This document shows, one piece after another, positions 8,009 to 47,910 of a stretch of 64,000 nt of DNA; the stretch's first letter is position 1, and the number at the start of each line of letters is the position of its first letter. The position numbers and the translations under genes were made by a program. Below the pieces are notes generated by a model that ran no database searches, was not told the origin of the DNA, and was given only the letters and a program-made list of their open reading frames with translations. Source of the stretch: a virus; the IMG/VR virus record IMGVR_UViG_3300037189_021371, positions 1 to 64,000 of that record; one strand, 5' to 3'.

Positions 8009-8022
8009 ACTTTTATCCTACA

Positions 8023-10227: not shown

Positions 10228-10240
10228 TTGCTTCCTTCTA

Positions 10241-12431: not shown

Positions 12432-12456
12432 AGTATGTCATTCTACCTTAAAATTT

Positions 12457-13317: not shown

Positions 13318-13319
13318 TT

Positions 13320-16358: not shown

Positions 16359-16672
16359 TAGGATAGCTCCACTCCACTGATGTGTACTTTGATAGTAGTT
16401 GCAGAGGCAAATCCTCTAATCTTCTTTGGAGTAGCATTGGCATCCAAAACCTGCTTTAGGTCCATAGAAACGGTAGCATTTCCAGCAATTGGGCTAGTTG
16501 CAAAGAGCTCAACACCATCTAGCAGAATAGTAAAAGTACCTGCAGAACTAGTTGTATTAGTAATTACAATGTTAGTTACGATGGTCGTGGTTCCGGTAGT
16601 TGGGACTGTGTATAGGTCTCCAACTGATGTTGCAAATGAAGCTCTTGCTAGAGCCTTTGTTAACGTAGCCAT
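16358..16672 (-). CDS. Small beta-rich virion protein
   Basis: 104 residues with alternating hydrophobic/Thr strands and no charged clusters. The pattern 'VTNIVITNTTSSAGTFTILLDG' continues into 'VELFATSPIAGNATV' and resembles small phage proteins found beside fibre genes. GGAAGTAG precedes the ATG. Coupled to the large downstream gene by TAATG. Function not recognised beyond a structural role. Confidence 0.65.
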   Translation of the reverse strand: MATLTKALARASFATSVGDLYTVPTTGTTTIVTNIVITNTTSSAGTFTILLDGVELFATSPIAGNATVSMDLKQVLDANATPKKIRGFASATTIKVHISGVELS

Positions 16673-16706
16673 TAGTTACTACTTCCTTATTAATATGGTG
16701 GGTTTA

Positions 16707-19700
16707 TTAGTAGGCACCCATGATAACCATTATATCAACGCTCTGTGTGACCCATTGAGTATCGTTATCAGTGCCTGATTTTTTAACTAAGACTTGACCG
16801 GTAGTTCCGCCTGCTGGAACTCCAGAACCATTAGGGTTTGTAACTCCATTAGATAGAACCCATGTGGTGCCGTAGTAGACATATAGGTTTCCATCATTTG
16901 TATTAAACCAAACATCTCCTGCAGTAGGTGATGATGGTGCAGAAGAGGCTGAAGTTACAGCTGCTCCCTTAGATGCAGCAGTAATGCGACCCTTAGAGTC
17001 AACTGTGATGTTTGCACTTGTGTATGAACCAGCGGTGACTGTTGTAGTTGCTAAGGTCGGGTTTGGGTATGTTCCAGTAAGGTCTCCACCAGCAGAACCG
17101 GTAGGTGTACGAGAATCAGATAGACGAGAGTCTGTTGTAATAACTGCAGTTCCAGTAATATCTGATGGTGAAATGGCCGCAGATGAGCTCAGAACACCAC
17201 TTGAATTAGTCTTAACATATCCAGCTGTAGATAGCGGGGTAGTCACAGTTCCGGTAAAGGTAGGAGAAGAGCTTGGTGCTTTAGCATCTAGCTGAGTTTG
17301 GATCGAACTAGTAACGCCATCTACATACCCAATCTCCGTGGCACTTACGCTACCTATAGATGTTGTACTTGGCAGTACCACTGTTCCCGTGAAGGTTGGA
17401 GCATCAAGTGGAGCAAGTACAGTGTTATCTGCAGCAATTGTTCCACCAGTTTTAGTTAGACCATACCCGGTAACAATTGCTTGAGCAGCATTGAACTGCA
17501 CATATGTAACATTGTCAGTTCCAATTGCAACTGAGCCAGAGTTAGATAAGATAAATCCAGTGTTTGCATAGGTGCTACCACCTGTAACGAAGCAGAAATC
17601 TCCACCGGCAAGTTCACCAGATGGGTTATTGTCAGCATCTGCAGCACGAGTTATCTGCCAAGGAGCTGATCCACTACCTACAGCAGTAATGGTATAAATA
17701 CCATTTTGTTTTGCATCGGTCTGTGCACGGAGTAAGATACGTGAACCAACTACTACTGATGCACCATCAATAGTTCCAATTGATCCATTAGATGCTTTTG
17801 TTAGAGTTGCACCATACCCATTTGTACCGTTGTCATATGTTCCAGCAAGATTTCCGGCTGTAGCTGCAACTACTGGAGCGTGGAAGTTAATGCCCGAGGC
17901 AACTCCATCCACATATAGCTTTGTAGCTGCATGTAGATCAGAAGTTGGAGCACCTGAAAGCGTCAAGGCTCCTGTCATGGTGCCGCCGCTTAGGGAAAGT
18001 TTTGCATCTAGAGCAGTCTGCTGAGCAGTTGATACTGGCTTATTGGCATCAGAAGTATTGGTAACGTTGCCCAAACCAACCATAGACTTAGTAATGCCAG
18101 AAACCGTACCTGTAAACGTAGGGCTATCAATCGGAGCATAAGTAGAAGCTGCAGTAGATGAAGCTAGCTTTGAATCAAGCTGAGTCTGGATAGCCGAAGT
18201 TACACCATCCACATAACCAATCTCGATGGCTGAGACACTTCCAATAGAAGTAGTTGATGGCAGGACAACGGTTCCAGTAAAGGTAGGTGCTGCTAATGGT
18301 GCATAAGTAGAAGCTGCAGTAGATGAAGCTAGCTTTGAATCAAGCTGAGTCTGGATCGAACTAGTAACGCCATCTAGGTATCCGATTTCGGTATCAGATA
18401 CGCCAGTTACCTTATCTTGTTTAAGATCTAGAGCAGTCTGAGTAGCAGTGCTTACTGGTTTATTTACATCCGAGGTATTATTTACATTGCCTAGGCCAAC
18501 CATCGACTTTGTGATACCGGATACTGTTCCAGTAAATGTAGGATCTGCAGTAGGAGCCTTGGCATCCAACTGGGTCTGAATTGAAGAGGTAACTCCATCT
18601 ACGTATCCTATTTCAGTTGCAGATACGTTACCAATTGAAGTAGTACTTGGAAGAACTACAGTTCCAGTAAATGTTGGACCAGATAGCGGTGCTTTTGAAT
18701 CCAACTGGGTCTGAACTGCAGATGTAACACCATCTAGATAGTTGAGCTCGGTGGCGGATACGTTACCAATAGAGGTAGTTTGAGGAAGGCTGATGGTTCC
18801 TGTGAAGGTAGCTCCACCAGAAAGGTTAGCCTTAAGATCTAAAGCGGTTTGAGCTGCAATAGATACTGGCTTATTTGCATCTGAAGTATTATTGACGTTT
18901 CCTAGGCCAACCATTGCCTTGGTTATACCTGAGACAGTGCCAGTAAATGTAGGACTATCTATAGGAGCTTTGCTGCTAATTTGAGTTTGAATAGCCCCTG
19001 TAACACCAGAAAGATAGTTTAGCTCTACGGTAGTAGCAACTATTCCATCTAGTGTATTTAATTCAGATGTACTTGCAGTGATGCCATTTAAAGTATTTAG
19101 CTCTGCTGTGGTTGCTAGGATTCCATCTAGAATATTTAGCTCGGTAGTGCTAGCAGTAATGCCATCTAGAGTATTTAACTCGGCTGTGCTAGCTGTAAGG
19201 CCATGTAGAGTGTTTAACTCTGTAGTAGTTGCAGTGATGCCGTCTAGAGTATTTAATTCAGATGTGCTTGCAGTGATGCCGTCTAGAGTATTGAGCTCAG
19301 CCGTACTAGCTGTAATACCATCTAGGGTGTTAATTTCTGCTGCAGAAGCAGTAATTTCGCTAAGAGTAGTGAACTGATTCGGCCCTACAGTGTGAACTCC
19401 ACCATATGTGGCAATTGTTGTATCCACTGGAAGAGATACGCTACCGGTAAATGTTGGGTTATTTTTCAGAGCAATTGCATTGGTATCCGCAATGCCGTGC
19501 ACATTGGTAGTTTTGTTTGAGTGAGTGTTGATATTAGTGATCAACTGGGTTTCATAGACTAAGTTACGAGTATCTGAGATACCGTGAACATTTGTAGTAA
19601 GACCCTCGTGGGTGGCCATAATGCTATCAGCGTGGTCAATAGCATCAGTCTTAGCAGTACCGATGCTAGTAGCAACTGTAGTAGAGAAGTTGGCATCATC

Positions 19701-20429
19701 GTTGATGGCCGCAGCTAGCTCATTTAGGGTATTGAGTAGTCCAGGGGCAGCATCTACTAAGTTAGATACAGCTGTATCGGTATACCCATTTGCAGAGGTT
19801 ACTGCTCCGCTTGCAGCAGTAGAGATAGCACTAGCAGTCGCATCCAATGCACGCTGGTTGGTGAAGTATTTGTGGTTAGTACCTTCAGCTAAGTCATCTG
19901 TAGTTGAGTCAGCAACACCATTCTCGGCGGCAAAACTAATCTTGTTGTGTACATCATCGTAAGTAATAGTGATGTTTGCATGGGTTCCAGCGGCTATTGC
20001 TGCAGCGACAGCATCTTGAGCACGCTCGTCTGTAAAGTATTTGTTAGTACCTTCTTCAATGTCTGAAGTGGTAAGTGCATTGATAGAAGTATCGGTATAG
20101 GTGTTAGCTGTTGTAATAGCACCTGAAATGTTTGTTGCAATGCTACTAAAGAATGCTGGATCATCATTGATTGCTGCAGCTAGCTCATTTAGAGTATCTA
20201 GAGCACCTGGTGCCATATCAATGACATTGGAAACAGCTGTTGTAATAGCAGTTGCCACCTCAGTGGGAGTCATTCCTGCATAAGCTAGGTCTACCCATGC
20301 TGTTGTGCCGGTACCTACCTTTAGTTTACCGGTATCCGTCTCTAGAGCTAGTTCTCCGACTGAAAGAGTAGGATTGGTCGAGGTCCAGTTAGCGGCTGTA
20401 CCGCGTCTAATCTGAATCTTAATTGCCAT
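16707..20429 (-). CDS. Long repeat-rich tail fibre protein
   Basis: 1240 residues. The N-terminus '[15 protein letters not shown]' followed by '[21 protein letters not shown]' is a hallmark of phage fibre heads. Near residues 355-472 are nine 13-residue repeats of the form '[13 protein letters not shown]'. Further on, modules of about 45-50 residues repeat '[16 protein letters not shown]', '[19 protein letters not shown]' and '[12 protein letters not shown]'. The C-terminus has '[18 protein letters not shown]'. It should form a long trimeric beta-helical or coiled shaft. The start overlaps the preceding stop (TAATG). Confidence 0.85.
19014..19365 (-). repeat. Nine tandem 39-nt coding repeats in the long fibre
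   Basis: The 39-nt unit encodes 13 residues (consensus ITASTxELNTLDG). Copies differ mainly at synonymous sites and at the residue before Glu, which suggests old duplication followed by purifying selection. Confidence 0.85.
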
Positions 20430-20878
20430 TAGAAGCTACTTTCGTTTCCACCATCATAGGTAATTAGGTAAGAAGTGGTCGGGGTTCCACCATCAATTGT
20501 ACCAGTTGGCTGAGCGTTGTATAATCCGCTATCACCATTTAATAGTCCGGTCTCTATTAATACATTTGTCATTACTTGGCTCATCCAGGCTGTGCTTACA
20601 GGGCCATATAGAATATCGGCTAGAGAAGTATTTTGCCATGTAGAGTCTGCGCTGTTATATAGGAGAATGTCTCCCTCTATAGGCGCTGTTATAGAGACAT
20701 CATATAAAGATGATAGGTACCCACCGCTACCGCCACCTTGAGCCGCAATCCATCTCGTAGATGTATGTACATATACTGTTTGCTCGTCTGTTTTGTAAAA
20801 TAAATCACCAGATGAACCTACCGATGGAAGAGTGGTCCCATGCGGTAGGTTTATCGGTGTTAAAAACTTTCTAGACAA
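20429..20878 (-). CDS. Short fibre / fibre-head protein (TTG start)
   Basis: 149 residues. The start is TTG at 20878 with AAGGAT upstream. That start is supported because the N-terminus '[14 protein letters not shown]' aligns with 'MSRQFLTGLNLNKN' of the next upstream fibre gene. It contains '[20 protein letters not shown]', a fibre motif, a Gly/Ser hinge, and '[15 protein letters not shown]'. Stop and next start overlap (TAATG). Confidence 0.75.
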
Positions 20879-20903
20879 GTTTTATCCTTAGTATATTGTG
20901 AAA

Positions 20904-23267
20904 CTAGCCTACAACAACAACGCGGAATGAGTCATCAGCAACGTTACTAGAAACCCATGAAAGGGTAACTGTATTTGTGCTAGTGATGTCAACATCAACT
21001 TCTACTAATTCCTTAGTACTTATATCTTTTAGCTGAACAATTACGTCTTCAGTTCCTAGATTGTGGCTAACTACCCATGAAACGCTGCCAGACACGGCAG
21101 TAAGTGCAGGGTTATTTGCAGCGTACTTAGTAGTTGCACCAAGGTTTTCACGTGCACCAGCAGCAGTAGTTGCTCCAGTACCACCGTCAGCTACAGCAAT
21201 GGTTGTACCATTCCATTCACCAGTGGTGATTGTACCGAGAGTAGTGATTGATTCTTGACCTACATAGGTAGAAGCAATGTCAATACTGTCAGAATTTACG
21301 GTGATTCTATCAGCAGTACCAACTGCATCAAGTTGATTCCCAGACTTAGTTAGACCTGCACCAGCAATAATCTGAGAACCACCAGAGAACTGTACCCAGT
21401 CTTGTCCAGTAAAATCAGCAATGTAGTGGTTAGCCTGAGTCCAAGCTGACTGTCCGTAAGTTTCGCCTTCCTCGACGAATACGGTTGCACCCTTTAGCTC
21501 AGCGAAAGCATCAGCATCAGTTGCACGAGAAAGGGTCCAAACATCGCCATCATCAGCGTAGCTCCAGATACCTGCGTTTGTGCCACTGGTAATGAGAATG
21601 CGGTAACCGACGTGGCTGGTGTTTAGGGCAGTGTGTCCATCAATTACTAGAGTTCCGGTATCTCCGGTCAGACCTGCATTAGAGTCATCCCATAGAAGGT
21701 CTACAGCGTTCTTCCAGGTTAGACCTGCAGTTGCGTTGTCAACATATGCCTTGGTAGCTGCATCATTAGGATCAGTCGGAGTAGCAAGATTAATAATCTT
21801 GTAGCCATCAGCATCTAGGTTATCGCCTAGGACTGTACCTACACCAAGTGTCTTGTTATTTAGGTACTGGTTTGCACCCTGAGTAACTACGCGGTTATCG
21901 TTAGCTACGCTTCCTAGATACACGCCATGAGCACCATTATCTGAGGTAAGGATAAGGTTGTTGTTCCAACCGTTGATGATACCGTTACCGCTACCGTCTT
22001 CGCTGATTCCGATTACAGAGTAGCCAGCTCCAGGAGCTGCAATCTGTAGCGAGCCGTGAACGATGGCAGTATCTGCACTTGCATCTACAGAGAAGGTCTC
22101 TCCTCCGCCTACCTTGTAGACATATAGGCCACCATCATTGTCATTGTCTGGACCACCAAAAATACCTAGACGACCGTATAGGTTATTGGTGGCAATTACG
22201 CTTGAATTAACGTGTACGTTAGCATCTGGAGAAAGAGTAATATCTCCATTAGCTGTTAGAAGCTCGATGCCTGTAGTGTATCCGTGGATCTCGAGGACTT
22301 CGGTAGAGTCATTTACCTTGATTCCACCATCAACGGTAGGGTAGGTAGATGGGTTTGTGAAGTACAACTCATCGTTTACAGTCTTGTTAGTAATTACCTG
22401 AGATGCATCTCTGGTAAGGATTTCATTACCAAGGCCAGCACCAGTAGCATCATTACCCCAGTGGACGTATGCACGACCAGTTCCGCCATTGTCATTTCCT
22501 GGATAAAGGATGATGTCACCATCAGTAGAGCGGATAGCAAAGTCATCGCCAGAAACAATTCTGGTAGTACCTGTATATGAGTGCTCGATGTAGGCGGTCT
22601 CGGTGTTGCCAGAGTCAGTTAGAGAAATACGACCCTTGAGGGTAGCTGTATCTAGAGTCTTATTGGTTAGAGTCTGAGATGCAGTTCTAGTGACAATCTC
22701 GTCTTCGTTAACATAAGCACCGTCAGTTACATTAAGGCCTACATATCCATTATTTGCAGTAATATCTACGCTGGTGCTACCAGTTAGGGTGAAGGCATCT
22801 CCTGCCTCTGAAGAGACAGCATTGGTAGTAATGGTTCCAGCAGCAAATTCGCCAGATGTTCCGCGCTTTACAACAGTATTAGGAGTATTTGCTGAGGTAG
22901 CAGAACCGCCAACGGCATCGATTGCACGCTGGTTGGTGAAGTATAGGTTAGTAGTGCCTTCTTCTAGATCATCAGTAGTTGAGTCAGCAACGCCGTTTTC
23001 AGCCACAAAGTTGTAGACACCACTACCTGCATCATAGGTAACGCTGATGTTAGTCTGAGTGCCTGTGGTTAGGGCTGTCTGTAGCTCAGCTAGTGAGGCA
23101 TAAGTTAGCCATTGAGAGCCGTCCCATTGGCGAAGGTGGTGATGGGTAGTATCAAAATAAATTTGACCTGCTACAGGAGATGACGGGGCGGTAGCTAGGT
23201 TTTGAATTCTGGCATTTTGTAGCTCATTCTTATTAAGATTGAGCCCCGTTAGGAATTGACGTGACAT
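20904..23267 (-). CDS. Tail fibre protein
   Basis: 787 residues. N-terminal 'SSPVAGQIYFDTTHHHLRQW' is a fibre-head motif. The long middle contains 'NKTVNDELYF' and 'ASQTLTNKTLDTATLKGRIS', typical of phage shaft repeats. The C-terminal 60 residues ('WVVSHNLGTEDVIVQLKD...') form a small beta domain that is also common at fibre ends. It shares '[24 protein letters not shown]' type segments with the 1240-residue fibre, indicating fibre duplication. AAGGAAAA precedes the ATG. Confidence 0.85.
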   Translation of the reverse strand: MSRQFLTGLNLNKNELQNARIQNLATAPSSPVAGQIYFDTTHHHLRQWDGSQWLTYASLAELQTALTTGTQTNISVTYDAGSGVYNFVAENGVADSTTDDLEEGTTNLYFTNQRAIDAVGGSATSANTPNTVVKRGTSGEFAAGTITTNAVSSEAGDAFTLTGSTSVDITANNGYVGLNVTDGAYVNEDEIVTRTASQTLTNKTLDTATLKGRISLTDSGNTETAYIEHSYTGTTRIVSGDDFAIRSTDGDIILYPGNDNGGTGRAYVHWGNDATGAGLGNEILTRDASQVITNKTVNDELYFTNPSTYPTVDGGIKVNDSTEVLEIHGYTTGIELLTANGDITLSPDANVHVNSSVIATNNLYGRLGIFGGPDNDNDGGLYVYKVGGGETFSVDASADTAIVHGSLQIAAPGAGYSVIGISEDGSGNGIINGWNNNLILTSDNGAHGVYLGSVANDNRVVTQGANQYLNNKTLGVGTVLGDNLDADGYKIINLATPTDPNDAATKAYVDNATAGLTWKNAVDLLWDDSNAGLTGDTGTLVIDGHTALNTSHVGYRILITSGTNAGIWSYADDGDVWTLSRATDADAFAELKGATVFVEEGETYGQSAWTQANHYIADFTGQDWVQFSGGSQIIAGAGLTKSGNQLDAVGTADRITVNSDSIDIASTYVGQESITTLGTITTGEWNGTTIAVADGGTGATTAAGARENLGATTKYAANNPALTAVSGSVSWVVSHNLGTEDVIVQLKDISTKELVEVDVDITSTNTVTLSWVSSNVADDSFRVVVVG

Positions 23268-23277
23268 TTAATTTTCC

Positions 23278-23595
23278 TTATGAGAGATGAGCTTTTCCAG
23301 CAATTGCTGATGAAAAAGATATAGTTAAGCGGGTTTCGTCGATATGTGTCACTGATCCCTCTACCTGAGACTCTCCGCTATCAAAAACGGTGACGTTCGG
23401 GAAGAAGTTTAAGTTATGAACTACTGTCCAGACAGCTAGTGGGCTGTTTTGGGTGTGCTTGTATGAAACCAAATCTACAATTTGACTGGCTTGAATTCCG
23501 TCAACTCCGCCAGGGCCTTGAGGTCCGGGGGCGGTTACTACAATTTGACGGACATATTTACCAGTAGCAACACTACTTGGGACGTCTCCGGCCAT
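23278..23595 (-). CDS. Short fibre protein with mini-collagen and C-terminal fibre domain
   Basis: 105 residues: a short head, one Gly-X-Y stretch ('GPQGPGGVDG', about residues 24-33), then a C-terminal domain of 60 residues starting 'YKHTQNSPLAVWTVVHNL' and including 'FFPNVTVFDSGESQVEG', a widespread phage fibre-tip module. The ATG overlaps the stop of the adaptor-like gene (TAATG). Confidence 0.75.
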   Translation of the reverse strand: MAGDVPSSVATGKYVRQIVVTAPGPQGPGGVDGIQASQIVDLVSYKHTQNSPLAVWTVVHNLNFFPNVTVFDSGESQVEGSVTHIDETRLTISFSSAIAGKAHLS

Positions 23596-23957
23596 TATCT
23601 AGTCACCTCTGCTCGGACAACAAAGTTGCCTGTTAGTAGTTTGTATACGTACAGGTTTGCACTAGGGCCGATGAGCTCTAGGTCATATACGTACTTGTCT
23701 TCAGGAATATCAGCCATTATGCTGTCATCTACAGTTAAAGTAATCTGACCATTGGTTCGGTGCAGGCTAATTCTACCGTTTTCAGTAGTGAGTACGAGGA
23801 CTGTATCGGCGTCATCCACTGATTTTCTGACATGCATTCGGGCTTTGTAGCCTTCCATCAGGATTGGTTTTTTGGCTGGATCTCGCCATACGATTGTGCG
23901 TGAAAAAGTAGAGCCCTGATCGGCTATGATGTTATAAAGACCAGCAGGTGTACTCAT
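23595..23957 (-). CDS. Fibre-adaptor-like virion protein (paralogue of 3156-3521)
   Basis: 120 residues, beta-rich, with 'YNIIADQGSTFSRTI' at the N-terminus and 'DKYVYDLELIG' plus 'FVVRAEVTR' at the C-terminus. It is the first gene of the minus-strand virion block; the divergent gene begins 92 bp away. The same family member precedes the collagen-like fibre at the other end of the block, so each seems to serve one fibre set. Role inferred from position. Confidence 0.6.
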   Translation of the reverse strand: MSTPAGLYNIIADQGSTFSRTIVWRDPAKKPILMEGYKARMHVRKSVDDADTVLVLTTENGRISLHRTNGQITLTVDDSIMADIPEDKYVYDLELIGPSANLYVYKLLTGNFVVRAEVTR

Positions 23958-31229: not shown

Positions 31230-32342
31230 ATGGATATGGATAAAAATAATAGCGATGCCGGGAGAAATTTCTCTAAGCCACTAATTATTTCTGGGAAAAA
31301 ACAAATCTCTTACTCGAAAAGCTCCAGGGATAGAATTTTTAGTACCATTTTGCAAAAAGATGAGTTTTATGTCAACAGCCTCTCCACTGCTGAAAAAAGA
31401 GGAATTGATATTAAAAATAAACTACTTCTAAGGTTTGATGAAAAAACTGGTGATCCTATATTTTTAGATAATACTAATGAGTACGTCTATAATTCAGATG
31501 GATATAGGTCTAAAGAATTTGATGGTTCGGCTAAATTGCTATATGCAGGATGTTCAAATACTTTTGGTACTGGTGTTCCTGAAGACAGAATTTGGGGATC
31601 AATGGTAGCTAATCATTTTGATCTTTCCTATGCCAACCTATCAAAACAAGGATCCTCTACTCATCTAATTGTTAAAAATATTTTTGCGTATTTTGACAAA
31701 TATGGACATCCTGAAGTTCTTTGTTGTTTATTTCCTGATTTTTATAGAATGATATTGGCATCAAATAGTAACCAGTTAATTTATAGAAACCCGCATGATA
31801 AATCTCCTGTAACTGGTTTTGGTACTGATAGTAAACTCTACGAAGTTCATTTGCATAATGCGCCTAATCCCGGGGACACGCCGGAATATTCTAGGCGTCC
31901 TCACAATGTTATTGATGTTATTCCTGCTGATACAGCTATTTACCAATCTATTCAAAGTATCTTAATGCTGGACCAATACTGTAGGGCTAATAATATTAAA
32001 TTTGCATGGTCTACATGGGAACCTGCGATGCTTTTCTTTTTAACAAATATAAAAAGTGAATATCCCCAAAATTACTCTAATTTAGTTAATTTAGATCTTT
32101 ATAACTGGGTCAAAAACCCAGATAAAAAAGTAGCAGGAGATTTATTTCAGAAAGATGCAGATCGATATATTAAAGATTCTGTATCTGAAATAGTCGATTG
32201 CCACAGTGAGCTTAGAGCTCAATATGGCGACAATTTTTTTAGAGGTTTAGATGATTTTCATGGCATAGATAAAACTCATTTTGGGATACATAAGCATACC
32301 CATATCGCTGAGTCTTATATTAAATTTTTAGAAAATAATTAA
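31230..32342 (+). CDS. SGNH/GDSL hydrolase-like protein
   Basis: 370 residues. 'LLYAGCSNTFGTGVPED' places a nucleophile Ser at about S109 in the SGNH block-I position. Near the C-terminus 'DKTHFGIHKH' supplies the D-x-x-H of block V (about D347, H350). Such enzymes remove acyl groups from glycans or lipids. No ribosome site is clear and there is no signal peptide. Convergent with the next gene; the stop codons overlap. Confidence 0.65.
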   Translation: MDMDKNNSDAGRNFSKPLIISGKKQISYSKSSRDRIFSTILQKDEFYVNSLSTAEKRGIDIKNKLLLRFDEKTGDPIFLDNTNEYVYNSDGYRSKEFDGSAKLLYAGCSNTFGTGVPEDRIWGSMVANHFDLSYANLSKQGSSTHLIVKNIFAYFDKYGHPEVLCCLFPDFYRMILASNSNQLIYRNPHDKSPVTGFGTDSKLYEVHLHNAPNPGDTPEYSRRPHNVIDVIPADTAIYQSIQSILMLDQYCRANNIKFAWSTWEPAMLFFLTNIKSEYPQNYSNLVNLDLYNWVKNPDKKVAGDLFQKDADRYIKDSVSEIVDCHSELRAQYGDNFFRGLDDFHGIDKTHFGIHKHTHIAESYIKFLENN

Positions 32343-33013
32343 GAGTTTCTACTGAAATTTACATCTATTCCAAGATCTTCGTAGTGTTTCTTAATAATCT
32401 TATTGCTTTCATCAAAACGACCTCGATCATCTTGTTTATGCTGGAATCCAATAGCTGCGCGAGGCCCCAGGGTCACTACAGAGTGGCCTACCATAAAACC
32501 AACAAATACTACATCACCTGGTTCTAGATGTAGTTCCATATCAGGCTTTATTCCGTAGGCACGCTCTTCGTTGATATTTTCTTGCTTATAAATCTTCCAG
32601 GTCACTTTTCCCTGACACTGCCAGTAAACAGTCTCGCGCATATCGCAGTGGGGGGCAATTGGCTTCTCTCCGCCAAGGAAATTAACAAATGCACTGACAG
32701 GCCAAAGCTCGTCTTCCAATAGTTCGTTGAAGACGTCTCTAACTATACGACTCTGAGGGAATACCTTATCATTTGGATTAGAGACCATTAAATAGAATAG
32801 ATTTCTTAAAAGTACTCCATTAATAAACCTCTCCTCGTATGGCTGAGCAGGGATATTACCTGGAGGGGTGGAAATCTCTAGCTGAGCATGGTTTATAAAG
32901 TCTTCCCAGGTGGGGACTATAGGAAATAGATTCTTAAAAACTACAGCTAATCCACCATTACGTACTTTCTCTATACCAGCACGTACTTCTTCTAATCTGT
33001 CAAATTCAATCAT
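32339..33013 (-). CDS. JmjC/cupin-like Fe(II)/2OG oxygenase (paralogue of 33988-34578)
   Basis: 224 residues. Metal triad H122-x-D124 ('PHCDMRETVYWQ') and H177, with R185 following. Spacing of all four residues is identical in the 196-residue product of 33988-34578, so both are one family. It differs from the P4H-like genes: no 'NDDYEGGE' and a cupin-like 'EPGDVVFVGFMVGHSV'. Likely a protein or small-molecule hydroxylase. It flanks the tmRNA/tRNA block on its left. Confidence 0.75.
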   Translation of the reverse strand: MIEFDRLEEVRAGIEKVRNGGLAVVFKNLFPIVPTWEDFINHAQLEISTPPGNIPAQPYEERFINGVLLRNLFYLMVSNPNDKVFPQSRIVRDVFNELLEDELWPVSAFVNFLGGEKPIAPHCDMRETVYWQCQGKVTWKIYKQENINEERAYGIKPDMELHLEPGDVVFVGFMVGHSVVTLGPRAAIGFQHKQDDRGRFDESNKIIKKHYEDLGIDVNFSRNS

Positions 33014-33987: not shown

Positions 33988-34578
33988 CTAGTTACGATTA
34001 TCAGGCATAAAAGCAATAGATGCTCTTGGTCCAAAATTCTGCACTGAGTGTATTCCTTGATTTCTTAGATATAAAACATCCCCCGGATCTAGCCTTATCT
34101 TTTTATATATTTTTAATTCTGATGTCTCATATTTTGGCGATTCTGGTGTCTCGTATAGCGTCCATTCTGACACGCCATGGCATTGCCAGAAAATAGTCTC
34201 CCTATTATCTTTATGAGCTTCTCCTGGCTTTTCCCCACCAATAATATTTATAAATGCCGAGACTGGAAGTATTTCTGTATTAAAAATATCGCTAAATACT
34301 TCTATAAGTGCACTTGATTCAGATAGCATCTCTAATTTAGATATTCTTACAGTTAGATAGAAAAGATTTCTGATTATCACGCCATTTATCATTCTCTCTT
34401 CTAAGGGAGAATTTGGGATAGTGGTATTCGGTGCCCCGTGAATCTCTGAATGTATTAAGTGGATAAATTTATCCCAGCCGGGCGTGATGGGGGCCATTCC
34501 CTTAAAAGATACAGCAATTTCCTTGGCATTTGCCTCGGCTATAGCTTTTTTGATATCTTCTTTAGAGTAACTAGTCAT
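33988..34578 (-). CDS. JmjC/cupin-like Fe(II)/2OG oxygenase (paralogue of 32339-33013)
   Basis: 196 residues. H122-x-D124 ('AHKDNRETIFWQ'), H177 and R185 occupy exactly the same positions as in the paralogue on the other side of the tmRNA/tRNA block. 'LDPGDVLYLRNQGIHSVQN' is the cupin strand with the second metal His. Shared blocks also include 'ERxINGVxxRNLFYL'. Transcribed divergently from dUTPase. Substrate unknown. Confidence 0.75.
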   Translation of the reverse strand: MTSYSKEDIKKAIAEANAKEIAVSFKGMAPITPGWDKFIHLIHSEIHGAPNTTIPNSPLEERMINGVIIRNLFYLTVRISKLEMLSESSALIEVFSDIFNTEILPVSAFINIIGGEKPGEAHKDNRETIFWQCHGVSEWTLYETPESPKYETSELKIYKKIRLDPGDVLYLRNQGIHSVQNFGPRASIAFMPDNRN

Positions 34579-34609
34579 TTTTCTAGTTTACTATGCTAGG
34601 GTATTGTCT

Positions 34610-35050
34610 ATGACTACTGTGCTAATTACTGCTGAATCACCGGATCTACTGCCAAGTTACGCTAAGTTTGGCGATGCGGGAGCTGATCTACGCTCAGCGG
34701 AAAATCTGGCAATTAAGTCTGGAGAAAGGGCTTTAGTCAAGACTGGCGTTAGAATTGCACTACCTAGCAACTATGTTGCATTCGTGCACCCTCGTAGTGG
34801 ACTCGCACTAAAGAATGGCATTACGGTATTGAATACTCCAGGGACTGTGGATTCTGGGTATCGCGGCGAGATTGGTGTAATTCTGTACAATACTGGAAAT
34901 GATGTATTTGTAGTAAATCGTGGAGATCGAATTGCTCAACTTGTTATTCAAGAATTTATTAGAGCAGATTTTGAAGTAGTGCAAGAACTTCCAGAGTCAG
35001 ATCGTGGAGATGGTGGCTTTGGCTCAACGGGAGTTAGCTCAGCTGGTTAG
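34610..35050 (+). CDS. dut: dUTP diphosphatase
   Basis: 146 residues from the ATG at 34610 (TTG at 34604 is possible). Trimeric dUTPase motifs are visible: 'AKFGDAGADLRSAE' (1), 'HPRSGLALKNGITVLNTPG' (2/3), 'YRGEIGVILYN' (3) and 'DRGDGGFGSTG' (5). Keeps uracil out of phage DNA and feeds dUMP to ThyX. Its last 23 nt overlap the tRNA-Met gene, so transcript processing must separate the two. Confidence 0.95.
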   Translation: MTTVLITAESPDLLPSYAKFGDAGADLRSAENLAIKSGERALVKTGVRIALPSNYVAFVHPRSGLALKNGITVLNTPGTVDSGYRGEIGVILYNTGNDVFVVNRGDRIAQLVIQEFIRADFEVVQELPESDRGDGGFGSTGVSSAG

Positions 35051-35101
35051 AGCCCCGAACTCATAATTCGGTCGTCGTGGGTTCAAGTCCCACACTCTCG
35101 A
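35028..35101 (+). tRNA. tRNA-Met/Ile (CAT anticodon)
   Basis: Acceptor CGGGAGT/ACTCTCG, anticodon stem CCGAA/TTCGG with loop CTCATAA, T arm GTGGG-TTCAAGT-CCCAC. Whether it is elongator Met or lysidine-type Ile cannot be told from the anticodon. The 5' end lies inside dut. Confidence 0.92.
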
Positions 35102-35120
35102 CAATAAGTAGGATGGCTTT

Positions 35121-35741
35121 ATGAATATTTCTATAGTTGATGGGTTTATTCCTACTGATTTGGCAGATAGCTTGTCTATCTTTCTTGATGAGCTAGCTAC
35201 CCCTACTCCTCAGGGGGGTATTAAAGGTGCCTTAGGTTATGACACATCAGAGGATGCTTCTAAAGTAGGCACCTCCGCTAGGGCTGTAAAAAACTATTCT
35301 TCCGATAAAGAGCAATATGTCTCTGATTTAGAGTCTGTGTACAAAAATGTGCACTCGTATGCCGAACAGTTTTTTAATTTAGAACTAGATTTAGTGAACT
35401 GCACCTATCAAAGTATGTCTAAAGGGGCCAAAAACGAGCTTCATGCAGACTCTGTAAAATTGGATGGCTCTACTTGGAGAGACGACGGGGTCCCTGAAGA
35501 ATTAGAATTTTCAGCTCTTCTGTATTTAAATAATCACTCTATTGATTTCTCTGGTGGATTGCTTAAATTTCATCTTCAGAATCTAGCTATTGAGCCTAAG
35601 AAGGGTCAGCTAGTAGTTTTTAAAGGCGATATAGATCATATACATGAGGTAACTGAAGTTCTCTCGGGAGAGAGAAAAAATTTAGTTTTTTTCTATTCCC
35701 GTAAAGGAAATATCTCTAGCACGAAGCATTTCAACTATTAG
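35121..35741 (+). CDS. Prolyl-4-hydroxylase-like Fe(II)/2OG oxygenase upstream of the carbamoyltransferase
   Basis: 206 residues with H108-x-D110, H175 and R185. The core reads 'LYLNNHSIDFSGGLLKF', more diverged than the array members. Only 8 nt separate it from the carbamoyltransferase gene, and both have good ribosome sites (TAGGATGG, TAGGAC). The pairing suggests that it makes a hydroxyl group that the next enzyme carbamoylates; this is inference. Confidence 0.83.
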   Translation: MNISIVDGFIPTDLADSLSIFLDELATPTPQGGIKGALGYDTSEDASKVGTSARAVKNYSSDKEQYVSDLESVYKNVHSYAEQFFNLELDLVNCTYQSMSKGAKNELHADSVKLDGSTWRDDGVPEELEFSALLYLNNHSIDFSGGLLKFHLQNLAIEPKKGQLVVFKGDIDHIHEVTEVLSGERKNLVFFYSRKGNISSTKHFNY

Positions 35742-35749
35742 GACTTGTT

Positions 35750-37192
35750 ATGAAAATTCTAGGTATAAATGAGACTTCTCATGATGCTTCAATTACTTTA
35801 ATTGAAGATGGCAAAATTTTATTTGCTGCTCATGCTGAGCGATATTCCAAAATTAAAAATGATTGGTATACCAATCGTGATCTTATCCTTGAAGCACTTT
35901 CATATGGCACCCCCGATAGAATTGCCTATTATGAAGATCGCTGGCTTAAGAAGTGGCGTATATTTTCTAGAGGAGGTTTAGGTGGTGGAAAACCTTTTTA
36001 TACTAGTATGCCTGAGCTTAAAGGCATTCCTACATATGTTGCGTACCACCACCACTCCCACGCTGCGGCGGGGTATTACACCTCTCCATTTGATGATGCT
36101 GTAGTTATTGTTCTTGATGCTATTGGCGAATTTACTACTAGCTCTATATGGCATGGCAAAGGAGATGAGCTTAAGCAAGTTAAGCGTTGGAAGTATCCAT
36201 TTAGTTTTGGTCTTTTCTATTCGGCCTTTACTGATCTAATTGGGCTAAAACCAAATGAAGAAGAATACATCATGATGGGCATGGCTGCTTATGGTGATCC
36301 TGATCTCTATTTTGAAAAGGTCTCTAAATACTTCCCTTCTGTGTACAAGCAAACCTATAACTTTCATAAGGGTATCGATGACTGGGGCCAAGATATAACT
36401 GATAATGATAAGTTCCATATAGCGGCAGCTGTGCAGAGAGTCTATGAAGATCGCCTATGGGATTTTGTCTACATTGCTAGACAAGAATCATGGAGCGATA
36501 ATTTAGTTTTTGCTGGTGGGTGTGCTCTCAATAGCAAGGCAAATACACTGCTTCACGATATATTTCCTAATATATGGATTATGCCTAACCCTGGTGATGC
36601 TGGTTCATCTTTAGGGGCAGCAGCAGCTTTTTATGAAAAGAAACTAAACTGGAGGGGTCCATACCTTGGTACTAACATTCCTGGCGACTATCCGGTGGAT
36701 GAAATAGTAGACGCTCTTATTAAAAACAAAATAGCTCCAGTAGCGAACGGAAGAGCTGAATATGGTCCAAGAGCTCTGGGTAACCGTAGTATTCTCGCTG
36801 ATCCTCGCGATCCCGACATCAAGGATAAAGTAAATAAAATAAAGAAACGTGAGCTATTTAGACCGTTTGCTCCTGTAGTTATGGAGGAGTATGCATCTGA
36901 ATGGTTTGATATGGATTATGCATCTCCGTATATGCAATATACCCCGAAATGCTTAAAGCCAGAAGCAATCCCGTCGGTTGTGCATCATGATGGTACTTCT
37001 AGGGTTCAAACTGTTAATGCTCAGCAGCACCCCGGGCTCTACGCTGTCTTAAAAAAATTCTATGAATTGACTGGAGTTCCTGTACTTCTTAATACAAGTC
37101 TGAATATAAAGGGACAGCCAATTCTTAATGATTTGAATGATGTAGCCCTGTGGGAAGAACACTATAAAACTAAGGTAATTACTGGCAGATAG
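35750..37192 (+). CDS. NodU/CmcH-family O-carbamoyltransferase
   Basis: 480 residues, somewhat shorter than the usual 540-600. The N-terminal Kae1-like domain opens 'MKILGINETSHDASITLIED' and has the metal-site run 'HHHSHAAAGYY' (100-110) and 'LDAIGE'. The C-terminal YrdC-like half has 'GRAEYGPRALGNRSILADPR' and 'RELFRPFAPVV'. Members move a carbamoyl group from carbamoyl phosphate (via carbamoyl-AMP) to a hydroxyl on sugars or antibiotics. In some phages related enzymes act on hydroxymethylated DNA bases. Substrate here unknown. Confidence 0.9.
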   Translation: MKILGINETSHDASITLIEDGKILFAAHAERYSKIKNDWYTNRDLILEALSYGTPDRIAYYEDRWLKKWRIFSRGGLGGGKPFYTSMPELKGIPTYVAYHHHSHAAAGYYTSPFDDAVVIVLDAIGEFTTSSIWHGKGDELKQVKRWKYPFSFGLFYSAFTDLIGLKPNEEEYIMMGMAAYGDPDLYFEKVSKYFPSVYKQTYNFHKGIDDWGQDITDNDKFHIAAAVQRVYEDRLWDFVYIARQESWSDNLVFAGGCALNSKANTLLHDIFPNIWIMPNPGDAGSSLGAAAAFYEKKLNWRGPYLGTNIPGDYPVDEIVDALIKNKIAPVANGRAEYGPRALGNRSILADPRDPDIKDKVNKIKKRELFRPFAPVVMEEYASEWFDMDYASPYMQYTPKCLKPEAIPSVVHHDGTSRVQTVNAQQHPGLYAVLKKFYELTGVPVLLNTSLNIKGQPILNDLNDVALWEEHYKTKVITGR

Positions 37193-37211: not shown

Positions 37212-37913
37212 ATGAGCATGATCGAAATTACTTTTCGCAGCGACGTTACTGTAAGACTTATCAATTCTATGGCCTCCGATGAGGCTGTAACTATGGCAGC
37301 TCGTGTATCTACAGGAGCCTCGGAAAATCCTGAAAAAGATGCTGGCCTAATCAATTATTTGATGCGCGATCGCCACGGGTCGCCGTTTGAGCACAATGCC
37401 TTTACCTTTTATATTGAAGCACCAATATTTGTTTTCCGTGAGTTCATGCGTCACCGCATCGCCTCCTACAACGAGGAGTCGGGTCGCTACAAGGAGCTTG
37501 CTCCTGTGTTTTACATCCCAGACCGCAGTCGAAAGCTAATTCAGCAGGGAAAGCCAGGGGCATATACCTTTGAGCCAGGAACTGCCGAGCAGCATGACGA
37601 TATTGAAGTGGACTTTGAGCTTGTATCTGAGCACGCTTATCATCGTTACAGAGAGCTTATGGAATCTGGCATAGCCCGTGAAGTAGCTCGTATGGTTCTT
37701 CCGCTGAACATCTACAGCAGCATGTATGTAACTATTAATGCAAGATCTCTTATGAACTTTCTATCCTTACGTACTATTCGCGAAGGCACCCACTTCCCTA
37801 GTTTTCCTCAGCGGGAAATTGAAATGGTTGCTGAAAAGATGGAAGAGTTCTTTGCTGAAAAAATGCCTATAACCTATGAAACATTTAATAAAAATGGAAG
37901 AGTTGCGCCTTAA
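37212..37913 (+). CDS. thyX: Flavin-dependent thymidylate synthase
   Basis: 233 residues. The ThyX signature 'RHRIASYNEESGRY' spans residues 80-93. Converts dUMP to dTMP with methylene-tetrahydrofolate and FAD. No ribosome site is visible, and a CATGCT hexamer ends 5 nt before the ATG, so a leaderless message is possible. Ends immediately before the next small gene. Confidence 0.97.
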   Translation: MSMIEITFRSDVTVRLINSMASDEAVTMAARVSTGASENPEKDAGLINYLMRDRHGSPFEHNAFTFYIEAPIFVFREFMRHRIASYNEESGRYKELAPVFYIPDRSRKLIQQGKPGAYTFEPGTAEQHDDIEVDFELVSEHAYHRYRELMESGIAREVARMVLPLNIYSSMYVTINARSLMNFLSLRTIREGTHFPSFPQREIEMVAEKMEEFFAEKMPITYETFNKNGRVAP

Positions 37914-38525: not shown

Positions 38526-39134
38526 ATGAATTATCGTATCTATCCGGAAAGTAATAGTGGTGGCGGCGGCAACGAGTCTTTTGTTATTAACGTTTTAAAT
38601 GAAAAAAAGAATGGCTATTATGTAGAGCTTGGTGCTTTTCATTCTAAAAAGGGTAGCAATACCTGGCTCCTAGAAAATGGCTTTAACTGGTCTGGAGTAT
38701 CTCTAGAGGTTGTCCCCGACTATGCTAAAGAATTTAACTCTAATCGTAAAAACCCTTGCGTATTGCATGATGCAACTACTTTTGATTTTCGTAAATATTT
38801 TGAAGAAAATAATTTTCCCAAGCAAATTGACTACTTGCAGGTAGATATGGATGCTGGGTATGACAAGCTGGGAAATGAAGTTGGTGGATCAGCATTATGT
38901 CTACAAGGGTTAATCAATTTACCACTTAGTACTTATAGATTTACTGTAATTCAATTCGAGCATGACTGCATGAATAACTATAAAAATACTATTGAGCGAG
39001 ATGCCCAGCGTGCTGTCTTATCTAGTTATGGTTACAAGCTAGTCCAACGTCACCCTCATGAAGATTGGTGGATTGACTCTACTGTAATTCCATACACTGA
39101 GTATGGAAGGTATTTTGTAGCTAATGCATCATGA
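38526..39134 (+). CDS. FkbM-like methyltransferase
   Basis: 202 residues. 'GYYVELGAFHSKKGSNTWLL' (about 31-50) followed by 'WSGVSLEVVPDY' is the SAM-binding start of the FkbM family, and 'DYLQVDMDAGYDKL' corresponds to the later acidic strand. FkbM enzymes O-methylate sugars or polyketides. GAAGGAT ribosome site. It overlaps the downstream oxygenase by 11 nt, giving a methyltransferase plus hydroxylase pair. Confidence 0.7.
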   Translation: MNYRIYPESNSGGGGNESFVINVLNEKKNGYYVELGAFHSKKGSNTWLLENGFNWSGVSLEVVPDYAKEFNSNRKNPCVLHDATTFDFRKYFEENNFPKQIDYLQVDMDAGYDKLGNEVGGSALCLQGLINLPLSTYRFTVIQFEHDCMNNYKNTIERDAQRAVLSSYGYKLVQRHPHEDWWIDSTVIPYTEYGRYFVANAS

Positions 39135-39723
39135 TATTTCTAGTTTTTCTAGTTCTATTCAAGGAACTGAGATCACTTATGTTGAAGATTTTCTATCAGC
39201 AGATTTATGTAACTACCTAGTTCAAGCTGTAGAGTTGGCTCTATCAGACCGATCATATGCTGATAATTTATATGAATACATTAATGATGGTAAAAAAGCT
39301 TACGATGATTCTCCATACATATATCTGTTCCATCATCCAGACACTAAAGTTCAATTAATAGTTAAAGATATTGTCAAAAGATCTATCGAGATCTACGAAG
39401 ATAGATATGAAAAAGATCCTAATATCGAGTATATAAATCTAGGTACTGTAGTAACTATGCGATCTGGGGTAGGTTTGGAGGTTCATTCAGATGATGGACC
39501 AAGTCTAAATAAAAATATAGCTACTCCCCATGGGATGGTCTTGTATTTGAATGATGATTACGAGGGTGGGGAAATATACTATCCTGATCTAAAAATTGCA
39601 ATAAAGCCTAAAATTGGAAGCTTAGTAATTCACCCGGGTACACCTGATTACTCGCATGGGGTATTGCCAGTATCCTCTGGCATTAGGTATTCTAGTACCG
39701 CGTTTGTTAAAAAGAAGCTATAA
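39124..39723 (+). CDS. Prolyl-4-hydroxylase-like Fe(II)/2OG oxygenase
   Basis: 199 residues with H121-x-D123, H178 and R188; core 'LYLNDDYEGGEIYY'. Starts inside the 3' end of the FkbM-like gene, so the two are translationally coupled. A shared substrate pathway (hydroxylation then O-methylation) is possible but not shown. Confidence 0.87.
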   Translation: MHHDISSFSSSIQGTEITYVEDFLSADLCNYLVQAVELALSDRSYADNLYEYINDGKKAYDDSPYIYLFHHPDTKVQLIVKDIVKRSIEIYEDRYEKDPNIEYINLGTVVTMRSGVGLEVHSDDGPSLNKNIATPHGMVLYLNDDYEGGEIYYPDLKIAIKPKIGSLVIHPGTPDYSHGVLPVSSGIRYSSTAFVKKKL

Positions 39724-41138: not shown

Positions 41139-41774
41139 TTGTTTGAAGAGCGCTATCCCGGAATTTTTGTTTACGAAAATTTTCTAACTAATTTCGAGAT
41201 TAGCGCTCTTTTTTCATATCTAAATGATGATTTTTCAAAGATAGACTGGGATAGGTCTACTAAAGAATTTTTTAAAATACTTGCAGAAGATATGTGGCCA
41301 ACAGATAAAATTAGGCAGGATTATTTTATAGATACTTCTGTAAAAAATACTACTAAGGCAAAATCTTCAATAGTGGCTGTTCCGCTAAAAGAATCTGAAT
41401 TTTTTAAATCCATAAGCGAAAAATTAAATTTTTATGGATTCCCTAATATGACACCTAAAGGATACATGGGAGTCGTTAAAAGATATACGGCTGGTGGATA
41501 TCTGGGGGAGCATCGAGATGATGAAAATAATTCTGACATAAAAAGTGCTATTAACTTTTATATCAATGACGACTACGAGGGTGGGGAGCTATATTTTAAA
41601 AATAAAGATATTTTATTTAAACCTAACTCGAATTCACTTGTAGTCTTTTCTGGAAATGCCGACTATACTCATGAGGTAAAGCCTGTTAAGGGAGATGTTC
41701 CTAGATACAACATCACTTTAACTACAAAACACACTACAAACTATTTTATAGATCTAGTACCTAACTGGTCTTAA
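41139..41774 (+). CDS. Prolyl-4-hydroxylase-like Fe(II)/2OG oxygenase
   Basis: 211 residues with H125-x-D127, H178 and R189; core 'FYINDDYEGGELYF'. The start is uncertain: TTG at 41139 is the first usable codon in frame and no ribosome site is clear. A short insertion ('KGDVP') sits between the distal His and the Arg. Confidence 0.85.
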   Translation: MFEERYPGIFVYENFLTNFEISALFSYLNDDFSKIDWDRSTKEFFKILAEDMWPTDKIRQDYFIDTSVKNTTKAKSSIVAVPLKESEFFKSISEKLNFYGFPNMTPKGYMGVVKRYTAGGYLGEHRDDENNSDIKSAINFYINDDYEGGELYFKNKDILFKPNSNSLVVFSGNADYTHEVKPVKGDVPRYNITLTTKHTTNYFIDLVPNWS

Positions 41775-46054: not shown

Positions 46055-46708
46055 TTAATGCGAGGCTATCCAGCCTTCTCCAGTGCCATATTCCCAGGCG
46101 AAACCTGCCATAGCGTATCTTCCTGGTCCAGGACCAACTTTACGCACCCCGTGGAGAAATTCTTTGCCTGTATCAAAGATTAGGCAGGATCCAGCCTTTG
46201 GTTTGATTTCAATGCCTTTAAGTGGGAAATATAACTCTCCACCAGTAAAGTCATCATTTATATACATAACTACAGCGAACTTGATTCTTGAGTCATATTC
46301 AGCGTCAACGTGCTCGTCTAGACCAACACCCTCATACTGACGCTGTACCTCTTCTAGATACGCCAGATCATATAGCCCCTCGAAGAAGGGAGCTAGACGC
46401 TGATTGATTTTGTCATTAAAAGCAGTATCTGGAATCTTTATTATCTTGTCATCCCAGTAGGCGGAGTGGTTTCGTTCGATGTATGCAGCGATATCCTCTT
46501 CTGCCTCTTCACCGTAGAGCTCCACCGCCTGGGAATGCAAAACTTCATGATTTCGCTCTTTCCAACTATCTTGTGGCAATCCTTCAGCTAATGTCCTTAA
46601 ATAGAGAATATCTTCTGGCTGCAGAGCATTGTCAATTTGATAGATACCCTTGTATAGTTCAACTGCCTCTAGGGTTCCTGATTTATATGTAGCTAGCTGG
46701 TTAATCAT
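46055..46708 (-). CDS. Prolyl-4-hydroxylase-like Fe(II)/2OG oxygenase
   Basis: 217 residues with H133-x-D135, H186 and R197; core 'MYINDDFTGGELYF'. Its ATG overlaps the stop of the oxygenase-dehydrogenase fusion (ATGA), so both are made together. Ends near the SOS box. Confidence 0.87.
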   Translation of the reverse strand: MINQLATYKSGTLEAVELYKGIYQIDNALQPEDILYLRTLAEGLPQDSWKERNHEVLHSQAVELYGEEAEEDIAAYIERNHSAYWDDKIIKIPDTAFNDKINQRLAPFFEGLYDLAYLEEVQRQYEGVGLDEHVDAEYDSRIKFAVVMYINDDFTGGELYFPLKGIEIKPKAGSCLIFDTGKEFLHGVRKVGPGPGRYAMAGFAWEYGTGEGWIASH

Positions 46709-47910
46709 ATTGTTGCCTGGTTGAGTACATCATTAACTATGTAAGATGCAGTTTCCTTAGGTCCGGCTCCTCTAAAGATATACAGATCGGGACTATTGTG
46801 TTCAGAAAAGTTCTTGTCTGTTAGGTCTATGCCCTTATATTTCTCTAAAGTGGCGCTCGCCGGAATCGAATTAAAAGTGATAGTTGATCCTGATGCTTTG
46901 GCTAGCTCTACCAGCTCTTGCCAGTTTTCTTCAACCAACCCTTTGCTGCAGGTATGTAGATTTATCTTTCTTTTTAGCAAGTTAGTTATTAGATCTTTAG
47001 ATTGAGGTGTGTATTCAGAGCAGTCAATGACTGTATTGTAGATATCTGTCTCTTGGAGGGAGGCTAAATCATTAGTAATAATTACCCCGTTATGCTGGAC
47101 GCCCCTATCAATATCTGAATTAAGAACCTGAATGCGGGAGACTATAAATTTACTTTCATAGTCTGGGTGATTAGTTAGCTGTCTATAGACTTCCCTACCA
47201 ACTAGTCCAAAGCCGATTAAAGCAATGTTTGTTGTTGGTCTGAATCTGTCGATACTGGGTGCCTCTTTGCCTGAGGTTATCAATCCGATGCTGCTGTACC
47301 AAAAGTATGGGCTGTGCCACTTTTCCCCTTTTGTAACCTTCATAGATTCGTGGGGAGTGGTTGCTGGGAATGCAACTATAGAGCCTGCCTGTGGCTTTAT
47401 TTTGAGTCCTATATTCGGAAAATTTATTTCTCCGCCTTCATAATCATCATTTAGATATATAACTAGGCTGTGGGTTGTAGCTGGCTCCCCGTGATTGGTG
47501 TCTTCATGAACACCTAGATTCTCTCCAGTGGCATATACCCTAAGATCAACGTTCTTGCTGACAGTATTTGGTAGAGGTATCCCTACTTTTTCAGCATAAT
47601 CATTGGAGCATTTTATAATGGGGTTGACTATCGGGTCGATTACTTTTTCAGAAGCTAATTCTCTAGCTGACTTATCTGATACTTGTAGACTCTCGTTCCA
47701 CCTAAATACCTTGTTACGCCCTTTGACGTTTACAGCTCGCCATACCCCGTCTGGTTGGGTATAGCCCTCTTTCCACTCGGTAAATTTAGGTAAAACTTGA
47801 TAGACGCCCCTATCACTATCAAGCTCTTCAATATCGGCTATGAGAGCATAGGGGTTGGTTATGGCATTACGGTATTCGATAATGTCATGACCGTGGTCAA
47901 TAATCTCCAT
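46705..47910 (-). CDS. Fusion: P4H-like 2OG oxygenase plus homoserine-dehydrogenase-like NAD(P) domain
   Basis: 401 residues. Residues 1-210 form an oxygenase with H135-x-D137, H187 and K197, core 'IYLNDDYEGGEINF'. From about 224 a Rossmann domain begins 'NIALIGFGLVGREVYRQL' (GxGxxG at 233-238). 'HTCSKGLVEENWQELVELAK' and 'FRGAGPKETASYIVNDVL' parallel the substrate and C-terminal regions of homoserine dehydrogenase. The catalytic Lys/Asp of that enzyme cannot be assigned with certainty. The fusion suggests sequential oxidation of one substrate, perhaps an amino-acid-like molecule. I know of no such fusion. Confidence 0.8.
   Translation of the reverse strand: MEIIDHGHDIIEYRNAITNPYALIADIEELDSDRGVYQVLPKFTEWKEGYTQPDGVWRAVNVKGRNKVFRWNESLQVSDKSARELASEKVIDPIVNPIIKCSNDYAEKVGIPLPNTVSKNVDLRVYATGENLGVHEDTNHGEPATTHSLVIYLNDDYEGGEINFPNIGLKIKPQAGSIVAFPATTPHESMKVTKGEKWHSPYFWYSSIGLITSGKEAPSIDRFRPTTNIALIGFGLVGREVYRQLTNHPDYESKFIVSRIQVLNSDIDRGVQHNGVIITNDLASLQETDIYNTVIDCSEYTPQSKDLITNLLKRKINLHTCSKGLVEENWQELVELAKASGSTITFNSIPASATLEKYKGIDLTDKNFSEHNSPDLYIFRGAGPKETASYIVNDVLNQATI

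What the first reader, a model, noticed from the sequence alone, without database searches (positions are those of the whole stretch)
35121..37192. Oxygenase and O-carbamoyltransferase as a two-step hydroxylation-carbamoylation pair
Seen: 8-nt spacing and matched ribosome sites. Known: NodU/CmcH-type enzymes carbamoylate hydroxyls, and some phages combine a 2OG dioxygenase (TET/JBP) with a carbamoyltransferase to hypermodify cytosine. Here the dioxygenase is P4H-like rather than TET-like, so a protein, sugar or unusual base may be the target. ThyX and dUTPase nearby keep DNA modification in play.
Basis: partly seen in the sequence, partly recalled or inferred. Interest (0 to 1): 0.8.

Follow-up and report, generated by a model that had tools for sequence, protein, structure and literature searches.

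The report
Phage hydroxylase beside a sugar-type carbamoyltransferase
A freshwater-type actinobacterial virus carries a prolyl-hydroxylase-like enzyme next to an O-carbamoyltransferase, but relatives keep either gene without the other, so they are not a fixed DNA-modifying pair; the more striking thing nearby is a row of eight such hydroxylases feeding into a collagen-like fibre gene, an arrangement kept in about twenty other phages.

Summary
Gene 1 (OGA) is a P4H-fold Fe(II)/2OG oxygenase with a complete HxD...H...R site; its best structural matches are collagen prolyl hydroxylases. Gene 2 (CT) is a complete NodU/CmcH/TobZ-type O-carbamoyltransferase. A dedicated two-step pair is not supported: OGA occurs without CT in 6 records (once as dUTPase-OGA-ThyX, the same slot minus CT), 39 of 48 CT records lack OGA, and only this contig has them adjacent. 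DNA modification is disfavoured: CT falls outside the 5hmC-carbamoyltransferase clade, no thymidylate-synthase-type hydroxymethylase or clear TET/JBP is present, and the nearest cellular CTs lie in polysaccharide clusters. CT does recurrently flank some P4H-fold oxygenase (27% of adjacent slots versus 5% background) or an SGNH protein (36% versus 2%). Best reading: interchangeable hydroxyl-making and hydroxyl-capping enzymes for a glycan or fibre decoration. Larger find: 15 intact 2OG-type oxygenases, eight in an array directly before a collagen-like fibre gene; that synteny holds in 21 of 22 informative phage clusters, and 333 of 334 array oxygenases keep the catalytic triad.

The parts
35121..35741 (+). 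OGA: P4H-fold Fe(II)/2OG oxygenase (PF13640), HxD (H108, D110), distal H175, R185 intact
35750..37192 (+). CT: NodU/CmcH/TobZ-type O-carbamoyltransferase, both domains
35740..35743 (+). AGGA ribosome site of CT, overlapping the OGA stop codon
   Evidence: by inspection
34604..35050 (+). dUTPase (flank of the variable slot)
35028..35102 (+). tRNA-Met(CAT), overlapping the dUTPase 3' end
37212..37913 (+). ThyX, flavin-dependent thymidylate synthase (flank of the variable slot)
31230..32342 (+). SGNH/GDSL-fold protein of the kind that most often neighbours CT in relatives
38526..39134 (+). FkbM-like methyltransferase (name from phage homologues; no Pfam hit)
39124..39723 (+). P4H-like 2OG oxygenase
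41139..41774 (+). P4H-like 2OG oxygenase
32339..33013 (-). JmjC_2/cupin-type oxygenase
33988..34578 (-). JmjC_2/cupin-type oxygenase
46055..46708 (-). P4H-like 2OG oxygenase
46705..47910 (-). 2OG oxygenase fused to a homoserine-dehydrogenase-type NAD-binding domain
3611..10993 (-). array of eight intact P4H-like 2OG oxygenases with a DUF6065 gene (8741-9478) and an unknown gene (8023-8760) inside it
1..3156 (-). collagen-like protein, at least 1052 aa, about 235 G-X-Y triplets, cut by the contig end; next gene but one after the array
11085..23957 (-). virion/tail fibre genes upstream of the array (fn3, Mtd_N fibre, structural proteins)

Best explanation
OGA and CT are neighbours in a reshuffling accessory region of an actinobacterial phage, not a dedicated enzyme pair. 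OGA most likely hydroxylates an amino-acid side chain (prolyl first) of a phage protein, with Fe(II), O2 and 2-oxoglutarate; its relatives in the same contig form the array that precedes the collagen-like fibre, so a fibre protein is the first candidate target. CT most likely makes carbamoyl adenylate from carbamoyl phosphate and ATP and moves the carbamoyl group onto a hydroxyl of a sugar, as part of glycan decoration of virion fibres or the host surface. They may serve the same decoration (make a hydroxyl, cap a hydroxyl), together with SGNH and FkbM-type proteins, but the partner oxygenase is interchangeable. Shown: gene structure, catalytic residues, fold model, clade placement, presence/absence in relatives, adjacency enrichment, array-collagen synteny. 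Inferred: substrates, co-action, and any hydroxylation or carbamoylation in vivo.
For: OGA: PF13640, intact H108/D110/H175/R185, AF2 model pLDDT 93.3; best PDB matches P3H1 (Z 18.7), chlorovirus collagen prolyl hydroxylase vCPH (Z 18.0), algal P4H (Z 17.9), tied within 1 Z. CT: both Pfam domains; near NovN/GdmN/TobZ by profile; separated with 100% support from the 5hmC-CT clade. The nearest cellular CTs (32-35% id) sit among glycosyltransferase family 2 (15 of 43 neighbours) and sugar epimerases; named phages with this type carry it by heptose genes plus a tail-fibre-like gene (S-CAM1), epimerases and GT10 (S-SCSM2R), or a UDP-glucose/GDP-mannose dehydrogenase family protein (HTVC008M). Not an obligate pair. 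Adjacency of CT to any P4H-fold oxygenase 29/106 versus 22/422 slots, to SGNH 38/106 versus 9/422, in 53 dereplicated loci. CT-adjacent oxygenases come from at least about 11 separate switches on the oxygenase tree.
Against: No Pfam glycosyltransferase was found among the window genes scanned, so the sugar acceptor is not visible here; the contig is a fragment (relatives reach 150 kb). OGA could act on a small molecule: PolD of the polyoxin pathway also matches at Z 16.7. Co-transcription of OGA and CT is compatible with a real two-step pathway in this one phage. A fold shows no substrate.
Confidence: 0.55

Rival explanations
1. True two-step protein modification: OGA hydroxylates a residue (Pro, Lys or Thr side chain) of a fibre and CT carbamoylates that new hydroxyl (+59 Da in all).
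For: Coupled translation signals; OGA has a protein prolyl hydroxylase fold; CT flanks some P4H-fold oxygenase far above background; a collagen-like fibre rich in G-A-T/G-P-T is present. Polyoxin building-block synthesis joins transcarbamoylation by the NodU-like PolO with hydroxylation, though on a free amino acid and in the reverse order (PMC4029187).
Against: OGA kept without CT in the same slot (L091); 39 of 48 CT records lack OGA; the array-collagen system also exists in a record without CT (G054/L146); known relatives of CT act on sugars or small molecules.
Confidence: 0.12
2. DNA hypermodification: the oxygenase makes a hydroxymethylated or hydroxylated base and CT carbamoylates it, as in 5-carbamoyloxymethylcytosine phages.
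For: A phage CT of this superfamily does make 5cmdC (PMC8670742).
Against: That enzyme is 25% identical to CT and its clade (Xp15, Effie, BF503P1) is split off at 100% support; in Xp15 and BF503P1 the gene lies by a thymidylate synthase or deoxycytidylate hydroxymethyltransferase, a family absent from all 19 records searched, the window included. No record passes the TET/JBP cut-off. OGA resembles prolyl hydroxylases.
Confidence: 0.05
3. Small-molecule pathway: OGA and CT tailor a free amino acid, nucleotide sugar or antibiotic-like metabolite.
For: PolD is among OGA's fold matches; NovN and GdmN, the closest solved CTs, act on natural products.
Against: No other biosynthetic genes for such a compound were recognised nearby; the partners in relatives are SGNH, oxygenases, DUF6065 and glycosyltransferases.
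Confidence: 0.12
4. Chance neighbours: two mobile accessory genes that happen to lie together, unrelated in function.
For: Only this contig has the OGA-CT junction; both move independently.
Against: The enrichment of P4H-fold oxygenases beside CT is strong (odds ratio 6.8, Fisher p 8e-10, loci not fully independent).
Confidence: 0.16

Closest known systems
Collagen prolyl hydroxylases (human P3H1, chlorovirus vCPH, algal P4H-1)
   Same: DSBH fold over almost the whole of OGA, HxD...H...R site
   Different: 14-22% identity; substrate unknown; bacterial virus
Nol-like carbamoyltransferases of cyanophages and pelagiphages (phrog_1601)
   Same: Same family by profile (5e-107); sugar-gene context in several
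   Different: 29-35% identity over at least 90% of the query; the window CT belongs to its own well-supported viral clade
GdmN, NovN, TobZ, NodU/CmcH O-carbamoyltransferases
   Same: Two-domain architecture and conserved motifs
   Different: Shorter (480 versus 576-702 aa chains); acceptor unknown
Phage 5-hydroxymethylcytosine carbamoyltransferase (MetaGPA, eLife 2021)
   Same: Superfamily and two-domain architecture
   Different: 25% identity, separate clade, no thymidylate-synthase-type partner here
Bacillus anthracis BclA with its P4H; mimivirus collagen with its own hydroxylation
   Same: Collagen-like G-X-Y protein with matching hydroxylase genes in one genome (PMC8968730)
   Different: Here a tandem array of 3-12 oxygenases plus DUF6065 directly before the collagen gene in tailed phages

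Membership tests
P4H-type Fe(II)/2OG oxygenase (PF13640) | Pfam match above cut-off | tested here: met
   43.7 bits against a cut-off of 27
P4H-type Fe(II)/2OG oxygenase (PF13640) | HxD...H iron triad and R/K for 2-oxoglutarate | tested here: met
   H108, D110, H175, R185
P4H-type Fe(II)/2OG oxygenase (PF13640) | prolyl-hydroxylase-like fold | tested here: met
   AF2 pLDDT 93.3; Z 18.7-17.9 to P3H1, vCPH, algal P4H
P4H-type Fe(II)/2OG oxygenase (PF13640) | hydroxylates prolyl residues | not testable with these tools
   needs an assay
NodU/CmcH/TobZ O-carbamoyltransferase | Carbam_trans_N and Carbam_trans_C domains | tested here: met
NodU/CmcH/TobZ O-carbamoyltransferase | conserved HHxxH and GRxExGPRALGxRS motifs shared with solved enzymes | tested here: met
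   motifs invariant or nearly so in 18 relatives and aligned with NovN and GdmN
NodU/CmcH/TobZ O-carbamoyltransferase | carbamoyl phosphate + ATP dependent transfer | not testable with these tools
   needs an assay
phage 5hmC carbamoyltransferase | falls in the 5hmC-CT clade | tested here: not met
   the 5hmC-CT clade is separated at 100% SH-aLRT
phage 5hmC carbamoyltransferase | thymidylate-synthase-type dCMP hydroxymethylase in the same phage | tested here: not met
   PF00303 in 0 of 19 records, window included; records are fragments
phage 5hmC carbamoyltransferase | W408/G421/R423 (TobZ numbering) signature | not tested
   no reliable TobZ numbering obtained from the printed alignments
TET/JBP dioxygenase | PF12851 match above cut-off | tested here: not met
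   0 of 48 records over cut-off; sub-threshold hits only
dedicated OGA-CT two-step pair | relatives keep both genes together | tested here: not met
   OGA without CT in 6 records; CT without OGA in 39 of 48

The most novel reading that the evidence does not exclude
These phages run a fibre-decoration line: a battery of P4H-fold oxygenases hydroxylates the collagen-like tail fibre, and carbamoyl, methyl and acyl groups are then placed on the new hydroxyls, giving O-carbamoylated hydroxy-amino acids in a virion protein.
Probability: 0.08. Interest if true: 0.88.

Novelty: new variant of a known kind. Interest (0 to 1): 0.58.

Why it matters
It removes an attractive but unsupported DNA-modification story and replaces it with testable ones. 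The conserved block of 3-12 active-looking prolyl-hydroxylase-like oxygenases directly before collagen-like fibre genes in tailed phages suggests dedicated post-translational hydroxylation of phage fibres, for which I found no description in the papers searched, and offers a reason why these phages carry so many 2OG oxygenases. For the carbamoyltransferase, the recurrent partners (P4H-fold oxygenase or SGNH) give a concrete list of acceptors to assay.

Tried and rejected
Searching IMG/VR with OGA alone found nothing; an alignment of five relatives found 16 loci, so the first result was lack of sensitivity. TET/JBP by PF12851: only sub-threshold hits, as expected between 2OG families. DNA-level match of the region to phage records: only a tRNA-Asn. 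ox07 and ox08 of the array, first taken for oxygenases by length, are not (8741-9478 is DUF6065; 8023-8760 has no family). An apparent fourteenth PF13640 gene (51457-51990) lacks the triad. The 'carbamoyltransferase makes pyrimidines' annotation in a cyanophage paper (PMC9146016) concerns a different reaction class and was not used. A single conserved CT-partner oxygenase was looked for and not found: adjacent ones are scattered over the tree. The 5hmC signature residues could not be placed.

Full report
What was checked. The two ORFs are at the stated coordinates with an 8-nt gap. AGGA sites lie 7 and 6 nt before the starts; the second overlaps the stop of the first gene. Pfam names them 2OG-FeII_Oxy_3 and Carbamoyltransferase N+C. 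The window is part of a 64,024-base IMG/VR virus record. A WhiB-like gene (30149-30454; recognised from its sequence, not by a family search) fits an actinobacterial host (WhiB as actinophage indicator: PMC10202952); there is also a tmRNA gene.

The oxygenase. OGA keeps H108, D110, H175 and R185. Its AF2 model (30-sequence alignment, pLDDT 93.3) matches P3H1, chlorovirus vCPH and algal P4H best, tied within 1 Z. So it is P4H-like by fold. Its clade has nine members, four of them taken from records without CT.

The carbamoyltransferase. CT is complete; across 17 phage relatives with 63-85% identity to it the motifs are invariant. In a tree with cyanophage, cellular and 5hmC-type enzymes it lies in a viral clade (99%), and the 5hmC clade is split off (100%, long branch). 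Nearest cellular relatives sit among glycosyltransferases and sugar epimerases. In named phages this type lies among heptose, epimerase or UDP-sugar genes, whereas the 5hmC type lies with thymidylate synthase or hydroxymethyltransferase genes. One cyanophage copy (P-SSM2) lies among purine genes instead, so the sugar context is frequent, not universal.

Are they a pair? No, in the strict sense. L091 has dUTPase-OGA-ThyX with 2- and 9-nt gaps and no CT in its 54-kb record; L008 has dUTPase directly followed by ThyX, with CT elsewhere beside an SGNH gene; L002 has CT-ThyX with a non-orthologous oxygenase and an unknown gene upstream; L004/L005 have OGA three genes before CT. Six of 13 OGA records searched lack CT and 39 of 48 CT records lack OGA at E 1e-25. 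Records are fragments, so single absences are weak; the same-slot comparison is not affected by that. In a looser sense there is a link: in 53 dereplicated loci 29 of 106 CT-flanking slots hold a P4H-fold oxygenase against 22 of 422 slots 6-10 genes away, and 38 against 9 for SGNH; one or the other is adjacent in 45 of 53. Partner oxygenases come from many lineages. The SGNH assignment of the 31230-32342 product rests on a moderate model (pLDDT 76.5) matching TesA-like GDSL enzymes.

DNA modification. No thymidylate-synthase-family gene in 19 records, no TET/JBP over cut-off in 48, CT not in the 5hmC clade. The case for a base target is weak.

What is around it. The window has 13 intact PF13640-type oxygenases plus two JmjC_2-type ones. 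Eight form an array (3611-10993, minus strand) after tail/virion genes and before a 121-aa gene and a collagen-like gene of at least 1052 aa. Its triplets are mostly G-A-T (82) and G-P-T (31); position Y is 60% Thr (141 of 235), in line with Gram-positive collagen-like proteins (48.3% Thr, PMC8968730). An independent search from the array's DUF6065 gene gave 40 loci: in 21 of 26 dereplicated clusters the array runs straight into a ~120-aa gene and collagen-like genes. Of the other five, two contigs end inside the array, two are distant relatives (31-32%) without the array, and one (L144) is a real exception. 333 of 334 array oxygenases with all four positions aligned keep HxD...H...R/K. Among CT-carrying records three have an array without a collagen-like gene beside it (L130-L132). 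Inference: these oxygenases act on the collagen-like or neighbouring fibres. OGA is homologous to array members (best window hits 27-32%).

Verdict. The sugar target of CT is inferred from context; co-action with OGA is open. Gene calls in relatives came from a simple ORF picker, and the loci were partly selected by CT.

Noticed in passing
window 1-10993 (-); L134-L171: Conserved block: tail genes - 2OG oxygenases - DUF6065 - unknown ~245 aa gene - more 2OG oxygenases - ~120 aa gene - collagen-like gene(s); 3 to 12 oxygenases per locus, nearly all with an intact triad.
   Followed up: yes
window 46705-47910 (-): 2OG oxygenase fused to a homoserine-dehydrogenase-type NAD-binding domain (PF03447).
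   Followed up: no
window 35028-35102: tRNA-Met gene overlaps the 3' end of the dUTPase ORF, which runs a few residues further than in L091; looks like an insertion scar.
   Followed up: partly
window 51457-51990 (+): Degenerate relative of the PF13640 oxygenases without the iron triad.
   Followed up: partly
window 33087-33399 (+): Phage-encoded tmRNA with tag AESRSTFALAA, followed by tRNA-Asn, tRNA-Gly and tRNA-Thr.
   Followed up: no
window 42740-43915 (+); L010:4327-6237: Subtilase (S8 peptidase) genes in these phages; in L010 it lies near CT and is joined to an fn3 domain.
   Followed up: no
L002:2159-2734 and L004 (185-aa gene just before CT): Unknown gene of 185-191 aa between an oxygenase and CT, overlapping the CT start (gaps -4 and -1); no Pfam hit for the L002 copy.
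   Followed up: no
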